From NCBI GenBank assembly GCA_016190205.1, contig JACPQZ010000005.1:1-9661 (forward strand): a DNA stretch of 9,661 bases. The letters are read 5' to 3'. This DNA comes from Candidatus Omnitrophota bacterium (GTDB lineage Bacteria > Omnitrophota > JACPQZ01). Both the position numbers and the translations under genes were made by a program. The first letter of the stretch is position 1; every line of letters begins with the position of its first letter. This document shows positions 1,850 to 9,369 of this stretch, piece after piece. The notes below the pieces were generated by a model. The model saw only the letters and a list, made by a program, of their open reading frames with translations. It was not told where the DNA came from and did no database searches.

Positions 1850-3413
1850 AGCGGCTTCGCCCCTTAACCTTAGCCAAAGTTTGCTTCAAGACGACCTCCA
1901 TTTCACTCATGCGCAGCAAGAGACAAACACCCACATAGGCCAGGACGCCCGCGGCAATAGGGCCCAGCACGGCCGCGGCCTTGAGGGCAAGACCGGTCAG
2001 GGGTGCGGTCTGGATGACCCAGGCATGCAGAACAAGGGCCACGGCCCCCATAATTGAGGAGGCGAAAAGCGCCTTCACAGCCGTCAGCAGCACTTTCCTC
2101 CCCCCCAGGTTTCCAATCTTGCGGCGCAGGAATAAAAACAAAAGGCTGTATTCCATAAAACCTGATATGGAAGTCGCCAGGGCAAGCCCGGCCTCACGCA
2201 AGAATTGCATGAGGATGAGATTCAGGATCAAGTTTACGATGACCGCGGCGATGACAATGCGGACGGGGGTACGCGTGTCCTTGAGCGCATAAAAACACGG
2301 GGCGAGTATCTTCCCGCCGGAATAGGCCACGAGGCCCAGACAGTAGAACATGAGCGTCGAGGCGGCCCTCGCCGTGGACACGGAGTCAAAGGCGTTGCGC
2401 TCGAAAAGAAGCTGGACAATGGGGTGAGCCAATACGATGAGCCCGACGGAGGCGGGGATCATAATGATAAAAATAGTCCGCAGCGAGAATGAAAGGGTCT
2501 CCTTAAGCTTATCCATCTCGGCCGCCGCGGTCTGCCCCGAGAAGGTGGGAAGAACCACCGTGCCCATGGCAATGGCAAAAAGACCCAGGGGAAACTGCAT
2601 GAGCCGACCCCCGTACCAGAGGCTCGAGACCGCCCCCTCCCCTAAGGTATATCCGAGGGCAAGGTCAATAGTGACATTCAGGCGATGGAGCATGACCCCG
2701 GCCGCGGCGGGCCCCATGAGGGCCAGTATCTTCCGCACGCCCGGGTGGTCCACCGCCGGGCGGTATCTCCAGCCTTTCTTTCGCAGCGAAAAACACTGCA
2801 TGGCCAGCTGCGCCACACCAGCTGCCAAGAGCCCGTACGCCAGGCCATAAATCTTATCTCCCAGCCCCGGCCCCATAAAAGGACAGATGAGATACAGGGA
2901 AGCCATCCAGACGAAATTAAGCAGGATGGGACTCGCCGCCGGGATCCCAAACCCCCCGAGCGACTGCGAGGCCGCTATTGCGAGGGCCGTCAGATTCACC
3001 AGGATGAGGTAGGGCAAAAGAAGCCGCGTGAGGGACAAGGTGAGCGCGAGTTTAGGGTTCGCCCCCACTGCATCCTCAACCAGCAAAAGGACTCCGACCG
3101 CCGCCAGGACGATGACCGCGGTCACAAGGAAAAGGATAGTGAGCACCCTGTTGGTAAGCTGCCAGGCCCCGTCACGGCCTTCCCTTTTAAGGGTATCGGC
3201 AAAGATAGGTATAAAAGAACTGGACAACGCGCCTTCCCCCAAGAGGCCGCGAAAGAGATTGGGAATCATAAAACTAATGAGGAAGGCGTCCCAAACAAAC
3301 GTGGTTCCGAAAAGGCTTGCGCTCGCGATGTCCCGGATGAGCCCGAGGCACCTGGAGAGAAGGGTAAAAAAACTGATAATGCCGAAGGATCTTAATACGG
3401 AACGGGTTGACAA
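1842..3413 (-). CDS. murJ: MurJ (MviN), lipid II flippase
   Basis: MurJ is an inner-membrane MOP-superfamily transporter that flips the peptidoglycan precursor lipid II to the periplasmic face. The 523-residue product is hydrophobic throughout and of normal length for the 14-helix family. The N-terminal signature is clear: SRCLGLIRD at 20-28, VWDAF at 40-44 and IPNLFRGLLGEGA at 50-62. R21, R27, D42 and R55 correspond, with an offset of three, to E. coli R18, R24, D39 and R52, which are needed for flipping. The start is an unusual TTG (3411-3413). It is supported by a strong Shine-Dalgarno AGGAAGG five bases upstream, by a stop codon nine codons further up with no other start between, and by the absence of any early ATG or GTG. 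It is divergent from rpsT and overlaps uvrC by 8 bp. This adjacency to rpsT recurs in other bacteria, as far as I recall. Confidence 0.96.
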   Translation of the reverse strand: MSTRSVLRSFGIISFFTLLSRCLGLIRDIASASLFGTTFVWDAFLISFMIPNLFRGLLGEGALSSSFIPIFADTLKREGRDGAWQLTNRVLTILFLVTAVIVLAAVGVLLLVEDAVGANPKLALTLSLTRLLLPYLILVNLTALAIAASQSLGGFGIPAASPILLNFVWMASLYLICPFMGPGLGDKIYGLAYGLLAAGVAQLAMQCFSLRKKGWRYRPAVDHPGVRKILALMGPAAAGVMLHRLNVTIDLALGYTLGEGAVSSLWYGGRLMQFPLGLFAIAMGTVVLPTFSGQTAAAEMDKLKETLSFSLRTIFIIMIPASVGLIVLAHPIVQLLFERNAFDSVSTARAASTLMFYCLGLVAYSGGKILAPCFYALKDTRTPVRIVIAAVIVNLILNLILMQFLREAGLALATSISGFMEYSLLFLFLRRKIGNLGGRKVLLTAVKALFASSIMGAVALVLHAWVIQTAPLTGLALKAAAVLGPIAAGVLAYVGVCLLLRMSEMEVVLKQTLAKVKGRSRCA

Positions 3414-3435
3414 GACGGCCTTCCTATGATGTACT
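3407..3435 (+). promoter_or_regulatory. Predicted sigma-70-type promoter of rpsT
   Basis: A perfect TTGACA (3407-3412) is followed by a 17-bp spacer and TGTACT (3430-3435), a 4-of-6 match to TATAAT. A start near 3442 would give a leader of about 22 nt containing the AAGGAG site. TATGAT at 3425-3430 looks better as a hexamer but is only 12 bp from the -35 box, so it is less likely to be used. The -35 box overlaps the murJ start codon on the other strand. Confidence 0.6.
3419..3425 (-). promoter_or_regulatory. Ribosome-binding site that fixes the TTG start of murJ
   Basis: On the minus strand AGGAAGG lies five bases before the TTG at 3411-3413. It is one of the strongest Shine-Dalgarno matches in the window and is the main reason to accept the non-ATG start. 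The same bases form the spacer of the opposing rpsT promoter. Confidence 0.75.
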
Positions 3436-3463: not shown

Positions 3464-3739
3464 ATGCCCATATTGCGAAGCGGATACAAGACGGTGCGAC
3501 AGGACAAAAAAAGACGCCTGCGCAATCAGGCGGTCGCGACAGAGCTCAAGCACCTTTCCGACAAAATCGAAAAACTGCTGAACGAGAAAAAGGCAAGCGA
3601 CGCCGAGTCGAAAATCCAGCTCCTCTCGCGCCTCCTGGACCGCGCGGCGGTCAAGGGGATCATCCCCAAGAGCAGGGCGTCGCGCAAAAAATCCCGCCTT
3701 AAAGTTCGCCTAAACCGGCTCCAATCCGCAAAGGCATAA
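3464..3739 (+). CDS. rpsT: 30S ribosomal protein S20
   Basis: S20 is a primary 16S rRNA-binding protein of the small subunit. The 91-residue product is of normal family length and very rich in Lys and Arg. It has the typical S20 pattern of a basic N-terminus (KTVRQDKKRRLRNQAV), a long helical middle with LLSRLLDRAAVKGIIPKSRA, and a basic tail KKSRLKVRLNRLQ. The frame is open upstream, but the ATG at 3464 is chosen because AAGGAG (3453-3458) lies five bases before it and the S20 similarity begins there. It is the only plus-strand gene here. It diverges from murJ and its last 30 bp overlap the 3' end of holA tail to tail. Some bacteria autoregulate S20, but no leader structure is visible in the short 5' region. 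Confidence 0.96.
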   Translation: MPILRSGYKTVRQDKKRRLRNQAVATELKHLSDKIEKLLNEKKASDAESKIQLLSRLLDRAAVKGIIPKSRASRKKSRLKVRLNRLQSAKA

Positions 3740-4780
3740 GACCAAAACCTCGAGTGCGGTTCTTTCCTTCATACCGGTCGACTTAAGTTTAAGGTCGGCC
3801 TCGAGCACCCACTTCAGATCCCGCATAAGCTCCTTCTGCGAAAAAAGCCTAGCCTGGCGGATGAGCGCCTCCGCGGCAAAGTCAGGGGTCCCCAAAGCTG
3901 CGGCCAGCTCTTGAGGCGACCGCCCACTGCTTAAAAACGCGCGCGCGGTCGCAAGCTGCTTGAGCTGCCAAAAGATGCGGCCAATGATCTCCGGGGCGCG
4001 CCTGCCTTTGAGCAAAAGTTCGTGCACGAAACGCAGGGCTCCGGCACTGTCTTTTTTGGAAAAGGCATTCGTGAGTTCATAGGGACTGCCTTCGCGGACC
4101 ACGGGGATGAGGCGGTCCACGGCGTCGGTGTCTTGTTTCCCGGCGCCTTGGGTATAGAGCTGAATCCGCTCCATGGCCATCACGATTTCTCCCATGTTCC
4201 CGGTCAGGCGGTCCGCCAGAAGCGCCACGAGATCTGGAAGGGGCTCGAGTCCCCGGGCCCTTAATCCGGTTTGAATCCATGCCGTGAGCCTGGGGCCGGC
4301 AAGAGACTCGCACCAGACGACCACACCGGCCTCTCCCGCGAAACGGACGAGCGCGTGGTCCTTCCGCAGGGACTCGGCCTCCAAAAGAAGGTGATTCGCC
4401 GGGAGGGTGCCGGCCCAGCCTGCCCGCAGCGCTTCGATCCCCTCTGACTTGAGCCGCTCGCAGCCGCTTACCCACACGAGCCGCCCCTTGGCCTCAACAG
4501 GCAGGGTCTTGAGCTCTTCGAGCGCGCGGTCCAGGGAATCCTCGTGAGCGGAAAGGCGTGTCTCGTTCATGACCCGGGCGGCGGAAGGCAGCGCCTGATC
4601 ACGCAGGCGTTCGATATGGGTCCTTCTTAAGTAGGCTTCCGGGCCGCATATCAAGGTAATGCGTGCGCGGCCGTGGATCGTGGATCGTGAATCGTGAATC
4701 GTGAGCCGCTTCCCGCTTCCCGCTTCCCGCTTCCCGAGACCTGGGACCTGGGACCTGGGACCTGGGACATCTTTATTCAT
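3710..4780 (-). CDS. holA: DNA polymerase III delta subunit (clamp-loader wrench)
   Basis: Delta opens the beta sliding clamp within the clamp loader. The 356-residue product aligns in layout with HolA (E. coli about 343 residues). It has an AAA+-like N-domain starting at LICGPEAYLRRTHIERL (43-59), a mid-region containing GNMGEIVMAMERIQLY, and a C-terminal collar region with IGRIFWQLKQLATARAFL and a helix-rich end. As is normal for delta, no Walker A motif is seen. I chose ATG 4778-4780, which shares one base with the lptE stop (TGATG) and suggests coupling; a TTG and a GTG sit just upstream. Residues about 4-36 come from a heptamer tandem array and give a period-7 peptide (VPG, GKR and TIH recurring) unlike any delta domain. 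A TTG at codon 43 is a possible alternative start that would exclude it. lptE-holA adjacency also occurs in E. coli. The 3' end overlaps rpsT by 30 bp. Confidence 0.9.
   Translation of the reverse strand: MNKDVPGPRSQVPGLGKREAGSGKRLTIHDSRSTIHGRARITLICGPEAYLRRTHIERLRDQALPSAARVMNETRLSAHEDSLDRALEELKTLPVEAKGRLVWVSGCERLKSEGIEALRAGWAGTLPANHLLLEAESLRKDHALVRFAGEAGVVVWCESLAGPRLTAWIQTGLRARGLEPLPDLVALLADRLTGNMGEIVMAMERIQLYTQGAGKQDTDAVDRLIPVVREGSPYELTNAFSKKDSAGALRFVHELLLKGRRAPEIIGRIFWQLKQLATARAFLSSGRSPQELAAALGTPDFAAEALIRQARLFSQKELMRDLKWVLEADLKLKSTGMKERTALEVLVLCLCGLEPV
4673..4770. repeat. Composite heptamer tandem array of 14 units in one register
   Basis: Starting at 4673, 98 bp read as 14 consecutive 7-mers, each beginning with G on the plus strand. 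The series is GTGGATC twice, GTGAATC twice and a degenerate GTGAGCC, then GCTTCCC four times. It continues with a degenerate GAGACCT, then GGGACCT three times, and ends with GGGACAT. Three sequence families are thus joined without a phase break. It lies in the first codons of holA immediately after lptE. Comparable short heptamer repeats (STRR) are known from cyanobacteria; a relationship is only by analogy. No other copy is present in the window. Confidence 0.93.
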
Positions 4781-9183: not shown

Positions 9184-9223
9184 CGTCATTGCGAGCCCCG
9201 CACAGCGGGGCGAAGCAATCTCA
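9184..9223 (+). repeat. REP-like palindromic unit, left copy
   Basis: The unit has an outer stem ATTGC (9188-9192) with GCAAT (9215-9219). Its inner stem is GCCCCGC (9195-9201) with GCGGGGC (9205-9211) around an ACA loop. It is flanked by CGTC on the left and CTCA on the right. This CGTCATTGCGAG...GAAGCAATCTC pattern is a widespread type of bacterial intergenic palindrome. It overlaps the alternative upstream starts of comEA. Confidence 0.88.
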
Positions 9224-9231
9224 ATGAGGCC

Positions 9232-9254
9232 ATGAGTTGCTGAAAGCAACTCAT
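9232..9254. repeat. Perfect 10-bp inverted repeat between the two REP-like units
   Basis: ATGAGTTGCT (9232-9241) and AGCAACTCAT (9245-9254) are perfect complements around a GAA loop. Flanking GGCC on both sides (9228-9231, 9257-9260) can extend the stem past a short AG bulge. No T-run follows on either strand, so it is not a canonical intrinsic terminator. Confidence 0.85.
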
Positions 9255-9284
9255 AGGGCCGAATTGATCCCGAGCGCGTCGTAA

Positions 9285-9320
9285 TGAGATTGCTTCGGCC
9301 CTTCGGGCCTCGCAATGACG
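9285..9320 (-). repeat. REP-like palindromic unit, right copy (inverted)
   Basis: This is the reverse-oriented counterpart of the unit at 9184-9223. The outer stem is ATTGC (9289-9293) with GCAAT (9312-9316), and the inner stem is GGCCC (9297-9301) with GGGCC (9305-9309) around TTC. It is bounded by TGAG and GACG. The outer-stem sequence is identical to the left copy but the inner stem differs while still pairing. Confidence 0.88.
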
Positions 9321-9330
9321 CGCGAGGGAT

Positions 9331-9345
9331 CTCCTCGCAATGACA
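9331..9345 (-). repeat. Truncated third copy of the REP-like unit
   Basis: On the minus strand TGTCATTGCGAGGAG matches the beginning of the unit (TCATTGCGAG shared with both full copies), then similarity stops at GATC. The second half of the palindrome is absent. It lies 25 bp from the end of the open frame at 9370. Confidence 0.65.
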
Positions 9346-9369
9346 TTTGCTGCTCTACGTCCAGTTCGT

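What the first reader, a model, noticed from the sequence alone, without database searches (positions are those of the whole stretch)
4673..4770. Three different heptamer families joined in one uninterrupted 7-bp register
Fourteen consecutive 7-mers fill 98 bp: a GTG(G/A)ATC block, a GCTTCCC block and a GGGACCT block, with slightly degenerate units at the block edges (GTGAGCC, GAGACCT, GGGACAT). Three unrelated motifs keeping the same phase is unlikely from independent slippage. It suggests either a process that makes or copies 7-bp units with drifting sequence, or a composite mobile repeat inserted whole. Heptamer STRR repeats of cyanobacteria are the nearest analogue I know.
Basis: partly seen in the sequence, partly recalled or inferred. 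Interest (0 to 1): 0.62.

Follow-up and report, generated by a model that had tools for sequence, protein, structure and literature searches.

The report
Solo heptamer arm of mobile IVP-type cassettes
The 98-bp patch of 7-letter repeats is three copies of short dispersed elements that, elsewhere in this genome and in many other bacterial phyla, form the matching inverted ends of a small mobile cassette carrying an unexplained four-helix-bundle gene (the 23S-rRNA 'intervening sequence' protein), which gives a likely origin for the puzzling 7-bp repeats seen across bacteria.

Summary
Confirmed: window 4672-4770 holds three abutting 7-bp arrays. It is not a local accident, and the shared 'register' is mostly bookkeeping. 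In a 382-kb sample of the genome, period-7 tracts outnumber every other basic period (72 vs 0-3; Markov control 0). Arrays have fixed ends and mostly 4 units + 2-3 bp (~31 bp), unlike slippage products. All three families recur; the third block is letter-identical (34 bp, degenerate edges included) to a copy at C70:106661. Arrays lie mostly between genes, cluster, and often form nested inverted sets (A-D-E...E'-D'-A'). New link: genes of the 23S-rRNA-IVP four-helix-bundle family (PF05635), in this genome, its phylum, named genomes of other phyla and cyanobacterial plasmids, are bracketed by inverted heptamer arrays. The heptamer differs by locus, but both sides match in 49/64 loci; HolA control 0/29. 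Related plasmids give filled and empty sites, including one operon with the cassette at two places, between stop and start codons, with 0-3 bp duplication. The window array, at the lptE stop/holA start junction, is best read as a one-sided leftover of such elements, now translated into HolA's N-terminus. Shown: association, presence/absence. Inferred: IVP as mobility factor, arm-loss history here.

The parts
4672..4701 (+). Element A: CG-TGGAT-CG-TGGAT-CG-TGAAT-CG-TGAAT-CG, 30 bp, four heptamers + CG (CGTGRAT family; GTGAATC of the finding)
   Evidence: same start phase at many own-genome sites; GTGAATC x4 in at least 119 stretches of GTDB genomes
4702..4706 (.). 5-bp spacer TGAGC between elements A and B (part of the 'GTGAGCC' edge unit)
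4707..4736 (-). Element B: (CGGGAAG)4CG on the - strand, 30 bp (GCTTCCC family)
   Evidence: 14 own-genome loci collected, nine or more with exactly four units and the same ends; absent as a x3 tandem from 96 same-phylum genomes
4737..4770 (+). Element C: AGACC(TGGGACC)3TGGGACAT, 34 bp (GGGACCT family)
   Evidence: letter-identical 34-mer at C70:106661; third copy at C21
4780..5370 (-). lptE (PF04390); its stop TGA (4782-4780) overlaps the holA ATG by one base (TGATG)
3710..4780 (-). holA (DNA polymerase III delta); the array lies between its only upstream start codons (ATG 4780-4778; TTG and GTG just before it) and the conserved first strand, so it is read as a ~40-residue N-terminal leader unless translation starts at the internal TTG
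   Evidence: most relatives start 3-14 codons before the conserved motif

Best explanation
The window array is a cluster of three ~31-bp 'heptamer arms'. Such arms normally occur as inverted pairs at the two ends of small mobile cassettes: [arm] - gene for a PF05635 four-helix-bundle protein (23S-rRNA intervening-sequence protein, IVP/S23p) - [inverted arm], ~420-500 bp in all, plus internally deleted or non-coding derivatives. Each cassette has its own heptamer, but its two arms match each other as inverted repeats. Cassettes and derivatives insert between the stop codon of one gene and the start codon of the next, or into or beside earlier arms, which gives nested arms of several families (A-D-E...E'-D'-A'). 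Here, at the lptE stop/holA start junction, only one side of such a nest, or three one-armed insertions, is left. Shown by sequence: genome-wide dispersal with fixed ends and unit number; bracketing of IVP genes by inverted, co-varying heptamer arrays in several phyla; filled and empty sites in plasmids; an internally deleted copy in this genome; the open reading frame through the array. Inferred: that the IVP protein or the arm hairpin drives or targets the movement, that the window lost its mirror arms, and that the array has no function in holA beyond being tolerated.
For: Dispersal. Period 7 only: 19, 20. Fixed ends and ~31-bp mode in own and foreign sets: 26, 29, 50. IVP bracketing, 64 loci: array within 150 bp in 34/64 left and 31/64 right against 0/29 and 0/28 at HolA loci and 0-7/64 in farther bins. 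In the phylum set, not chosen by arrays, period 7 in 17/29 left and 14/29 right flanks, other non-harmonic periods at most 2. Left-right inverted complementarity above the 99th percentile of swapped pairs in 49/64 (35, 43). Own genome: 3 of 5 IVP genes have inverted arms on both sides, 1 on one side; their families F, D, G are the commonest in the sample. Deletion derivative C24:38967-39197 next to intact C24:40212-40684. Nested mirror order in about a dozen clusters. Clustering: 41 gaps of 40 bp or less against 2 expected; 34% of arrays in ORFs against 90% ORF coverage. Plasmid IVP genes and filled/empty sites: 60, 63-76, 77-84, 86, 87. Y1 transposase genes of the same genome mostly not bracketed. 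Literature: tandem heptamers GACAGAT upstream of the S23p ORF in the Coxiella IVS, number varying by strain, 28-bp terminal stem (PMC4990558); Nostoc tRNA-Leu intron P6b stem built of 7-nt repeats of two classes that replace each other (PMC4476775).
Against: Families B and C were not seen directly beside an IVP gene; family A flanks one only in Desulfacinum (L292) and, in this genome, brackets nests of other arms. No mirror arm lies near the window array. About a quarter of IVP loci (15/64) lack detectable inverted arms, and a few have 8-bp units. Presence/absence sites could in part be precise losses. The 16 named genomes were chosen because they carry GTGAATC x4; the 29 phylum loci and the plasmids were not. 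IVP proteins are not strongly basic (median pI 8.0). No close relative of this genome was found, so the window insertion itself has no empty site.
Confidence: 0.72

Rival explanations
1. Ordinary simple-sequence repeats: replication slippage expands chance heptamers, as proposed for the excess of 7-mers in bacteria (polymerase contact length).
For: Heptamer SSR excess is known in many genomes and was given this explanation (quoted in PMC4692102 and PMC4679880). Some foreign genomes show long exact heptamer tracts of up to 133 bp, so slippage acts on top.
Against: In this genome the unit number is fixed near four, ends have fixed phase, the same element with the same degenerate edges recurs, arrays come in inverted pairs and bracket one gene family. 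Other periods are nearly absent.
Confidence: 0.08
2. Dispersed regulatory elements: four-heptamer sites bound by a protein or acting in RNA to control neighbouring genes, as suggested for the 49 GGGACCG x4 elements of Geobacter metallireducens and for TAACTGA repeats.
For: Same four-unit architecture in Geobacter (PMC2700814); many arrays lie just before or after start codons; mostly outside ORFs.
Against: Dozens of different heptamers in one genome, nested inverted arrangements, bracketing of one gene family, insertion into an IVP gene (L323), and no fold signal for the window RNA beyond shuffles (z 0.15).
Confidence: 0.1
3. RAYT/REP-type or IS200/IS605-type system: arms mobilised by a Y1 transposase, the IVP gene being cargo.
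For: Four Y1_Tnp genes of RAYT-like size in the genome; insertions without clear target duplication fit single-strand transposition.
Against: None of the Y1 genes is bracketed by arms; only one has an array within ~100 bp of the domain. IVP genes are bracketed consistently.
Confidence: 0.07
4. Assembly or binning artefact.
For: Draft metagenome-like assembly, repeats.
Against: The array is 98 bp, shorter than typical reads, inside an operon; families recur in many contigs; the same architecture stands in closed plasmids of cultured cyanobacteria.
Confidence: 0.03

Closest known systems
23S rRNA intervening sequences (IVS) with S23p/IVP ORF (Coxiella, Leptospira)
   Same: Same protein family (PF05635); terminal inverted repeats; the Coxiella IVS has tandem heptamers GACAGAT upstream of the ORF and a 28-bp terminal stem (PMC4990558); long suspected to be mobile
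   Different: These cassettes sit between protein genes, not in rRNA; their arms are 7-bp arrays whose sequence differs from cassette to cassette; solo and nested arms occur
STRR heptamer repeats of heterocystous cyanobacteria, and GGGAATC/GGGGAYT repeats of Xanthomonas and Nostoc
   Same: Tandem heptamers, mostly intergenic, about four units being commonest in Xanthomonas (PMC4692102); here cyanobacterial plasmid arrays are seen to bracket IVP genes
   Different: Described as simple repeats or G-quadruplexes; the passages read give no element, gene partner or filled/empty sites; many arrays here are not G-rich
Nostoc tRNA-Leu(UAA) intron P6b stem
   Same: Inverted arms built of 7-nt repeats of two unrelated classes, replaced as a whole (PMC4476775)
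   Different: Lies inside a group I intron, no IVP gene
Geobacter metallireducens four-heptanucleotide elements (GGGACCG x4, 49 copies)
   Same: Dispersed, exactly four heptamers (PMC2700814)
   Different: One family of consensus GGACCGG, read as regulatory; no partner gene reported in the passages read
MITEs, REP/BIME elements, cyanobacterial small dispersed repeats (the last from memory, paper not held)
   Same: Short inverted-repeat elements, internal deletion derivatives, nested insertion
   Different: Ends are not of conserved sequence but of conserved period; no transposase identified; 0-3 bp target duplication

Membership tests
Heptamer STRR-type repeats | tandem 7-bp units, several copies, dispersed mostly between genes | tested here: met
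Heptamer STRR-type repeats | host is a heterocystous cyanobacterium | tested here: inconclusive
   host phylum not named by the tools; only same-phylum relatives are given; nothing points to cyanobacteria
23S rRNA IVS | carries or derives from an S23p/IVP (PF05635) ORF | tested here: inconclusive
   no IVP ORF in the window; IVP ORFs are bracketed by the same kind of arms elsewhere in the genome
23S rRNA IVS | inserted in a 23S rRNA helix | tested here: not met
   window array lies at lptE/holA; no Rfam match in the window
MITE / non-autonomous derivative | terminal inverted repeats | tested here: not met
   not met for the window copy; met for 62/141 arrays of the genome sample
MITE / non-autonomous derivative | derivation from a coding element by internal deletion | tested here: inconclusive
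   seen for the genome's family D pair at C24, where segmental duplication plus deletion is not excluded; not testable for the window copy
MITE / non-autonomous derivative | target-site duplication | tested here: not met
   0-3 bp at the cyanobacterial filled/empty sites that align cleanly
REP/RAYT | Y1 transposase gene flanked by the repeat | tested here: not met

The most novel reading that the evidence does not exclude
PF05635 proteins are the mobility or targeting factor of a widespread, undescribed class of mobile element whose ends are defined by period (five like dinucleotides 7 nt apart, ~30 nt) rather than by sequence. The five-fold IVP ring would bind the five anchors of one arm (one subunit per heptamer step, like RNA on TRAP), so any heptamer can serve, which would explain both the fixed four-unit length and the freely changing sequence.
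Probability: 0.25. Interest if true: 0.88.

Novelty: new variant of a known kind. Interest (0 to 1): 0.7.

Why it matters
Heptamers are the commonest long simple repeats in many bacterial genomes and their origin is open; the IVP/S23 four-helix-bundle family is widespread and without a known role. The data tie the two together: IVP genes lie between inverted heptamer arms whose sequences change together, and filled and empty sites show that such cassettes come and go at stop/start junctions. That makes both questions testable and suggests that many annotated 'intergenic repeats' and odd N-terminal extensions, as in HolA here, are leftovers of these elements.

Tried and rejected
Common 7-bp register: rejected, offsets mod 7 peak at 3-4. 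Sister-genome comparison at lptE-holA: relatives too distant. RNA structure of the window array: no signal, though B and C pair weakly as UCCC/GGGA. Rfam: none. Reverse transcriptase as driver: none found in the genome. Y1 transposases: not bracketed. An endonuclease III-like ORF at C34:99881-100612 has AGCGACC arrays at both its first and last codons: read as two insertions at gene edges, not as a cassette cargo, for want of other cases. Phage records: no IVP relative at E 1e-3. IVP charge as support for nucleic-acid binding: weak. Literature searches for PF05635 or TIGR02436 with repeats found no description of the arm structure; the small-dispersed-repeat paper is not held.

Full report
WHAT IS THERE. 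Window 4672-4770 lies at the junction of lptE (stop TGA 4782-4780, - strand) and holA (ATG 4780-4778; a TGATG overlap). It reads A = (CGTGGAT)2(CGTGAAT)2CG, 4672-4701; spacer TGAGC; B = (CGGGAAG)4CG on the - strand, 4707-4736; C = AGACC(TGGGACC)3TGGGACAT, 4737-4770. TRF sees three abutting period-7 arrays.

IS IT CHANCE. In 382 kb of the same genome (four large contigs plus the window) tracts with 11 consecutive matches at lag 7 number 72; other basic lags give 0-3 (14, 21 and 28 are harmonics; lag 24 gives 7) and a Markov control 0. All three families recur in tandem at many places, with no match to the reversed control patterns. GCTTCCC x3 is absent from 96 same-phylum genomes, so families are genome-specific, although GTGAATC x4 turns up in at least 119 stretches of GTDB genomes over many phyla.

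NOT SLIPPAGE, NOT A REGISTER. Copies of a family start and stop at the same phase and most often have four units. Array length peaks at 30-32 bp in this genome and also in the IVP flanks of other genomes. C is letter-identical over 34 bp, degenerate edges included, to C70:106661. Neighbouring arrays are offset by 3-4 mod 7, not 0. Arrays cluster (41 gaps of 40 bp or less against 2 expected) and avoid ORFs (34% inside against about 90% ORF coverage, a rough ORF count). 62 of 141 arrays are in inverted pairs within 700 bp, and about a dozen clusters show mirrored nesting such as A D D E E' A', A D D' D' A' and A E A'. One arm of such a nest looks just like the window block. No mirror arm lies near the window block.

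THE PARTNER GENE. One of the inverted pairs holds a PF05635 gene (23S-rRNA intervening-sequence protein, four-helix bundle). The genome has five; three have inverted arms on both sides and one on one side. Their heptamers (CGTACTG, AGWWACC, CGTGCTT) are the commonest families of the sample. Next to the intact cassette C24:40212-40684 lies a copy with the same ends and an internal deletion of the gene, C24:38967-39197; the shared right flank means that a segmental duplication followed by deletion is not excluded. Best PF05635 hits of the phylum (29 loci, not chosen by arrays) and of 16 named genomes of other phyla (30 loci; 15 of 16 genomes have PF05635) were then read. An array lies within 150 bp in 34/64 left and 31/64 right, against 0/29 and 0/28 at HolA loci and 0-7/64 in farther bins. 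In the phylum set period 7 occurs in 17/29 and 14/29 flanks, other non-harmonic periods in at most 2. The heptamer is different at nearly every locus, but left and right are inverted copies: complementarity exceeds the 99th percentile of swapped pairs in 49/64. Arms sit typically 10-60 bp from the conserved domain.

FILLED AND EMPTY SITES. Nine plasmid records hold a relative, eight of them cyanobacterial (Nostoc, Calothrix, Pseudanabaena, Picosynechococcus, Aulosira). Of the eight regions read, most show inverted heptamer arms; two (L315, L316) have 8-bp or irregular units. Nostoc ATCC 53789 pNsp_c and Nostoc C052 pC052_D share one operon with an IVP cassette at two different junctions, so each shows the other's empty site: TTCTAG-GTT-ATG filled as TTCTAA|ATCAGGAGTCAG...GATT|ATG, and GAGGTAATGGG filled as GAGGTAATG|TTAGGGGAAAAGG...GAATT|ATGGG. 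Further pairs: cas10/cmr3 in PCC 7003 against PCC 7002, nrd in N. edaphicum against Calothrix NIES-4105, Aulosira against Fremyella. Two non-coding, heptamer-armed insertions were also seen, one inside an IVP gene (L323 against L324) and one between genes (L322 against L321). Where the alignment is clean the duplication is 0-3 bp. Precise loss cannot be excluded for single sites, but one operon with two positions and a relative empty at both (L325) is most simply explained by insertion.

THE WINDOW COPY. In most relatives HolA begins 3-14 codons before the conserved first strand; here there is no start codon between array and strand except a TTG inside the strand, and the frame is open through the array from the ATG that overlaps the lptE stop. 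The simplest reading is insertion at a stop/start junction, as in the plasmids, with the arm now translated as MNKDVPGPRSQVPGLGKREAGSGKRLTIHDSRSTIHGRAR. Whether the mirror arms were lost, or three one-armed copies inserted, cannot be told.

MECHANISM. Shown: arms define cassette ends; arms co-vary; sites are polymorphic. Inferred: how they move. No reverse transcriptase was found in the genome and its Y1 transposases are not bracketed. Solved PF05635 structures (2gsc, 2rld) have five chains each, and the first is titled as five four-helix bundles (reference in PMC10053308). Five like dinucleotides at 7-nt steps fill 30 nt, the observed arm length; a ring that binds one anchor per subunit would explain fixed length with free sequence. 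This is a guess to be tested; IVP is only mildly basic.

KNOWN RELATIVES. Coxiella IVS with heptamers before the S23p ORF (PMC4990558), Nostoc tRNA-Leu intron P6b (PMC4476775), Xanthomonas/Nostoc G-rich heptamers (PMC4692102), Geobacter four-heptamer elements (PMC2700814), TAACTGA repeats and mixed heptamers of Microcystis (PMC4679880). None of the passages read describes the bracketing of IVP genes by inverted, locus-specific heptamer arms; most subscription papers were not searchable.

Noticed in passing
window 9184-9349: Another dispersed repeat: TCATTGCGAG...GAAGCAATCTC with its inverted copy. TCATTGCGAG occurs 12 times and GAAGCAATCTC 8 times in 382 kb, against under 1 expected each; unrelated to the heptamers and overlapping the 5' end of the comEA-like ORF.
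   Followed up: partly
own genome C34:99881-100612: Endonuclease III-like ORF whose first and last codons are made of inverted AGCGACC arrays: gene edges rewritten by insertions at both ends.
   Followed up: partly
own genome C36:1-240 and 3130-3423: Tandem duplicates of a ~81-bp unit, each starting with an ATGACGC-heptamer array; looks like an amplified arm plus flank.
   Followed up: no
L323:766-975 (Nostoc N6 pNPM1): Non-coding heptamer-armed element inserted inside an IVP gene, with central palindromes; compare cyanobacterial minitransposons.
   Followed up: partly
L313 (Pseudanabaena galeata pPg_01), L316 (PCC 7003): IVP cassettes sit inside CRISPR operons (between cas6 and cas4; between cas10 and cmr3).
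   Followed up: no
own genome arrays, families D, F, J: Variation between units is often A/T or C/G at one or two inner positions (AGWWACC, CGTACWG, AGTCSAC) rather than transitions, perhaps a trace of copying from the inverted arm.
   Followed up: no
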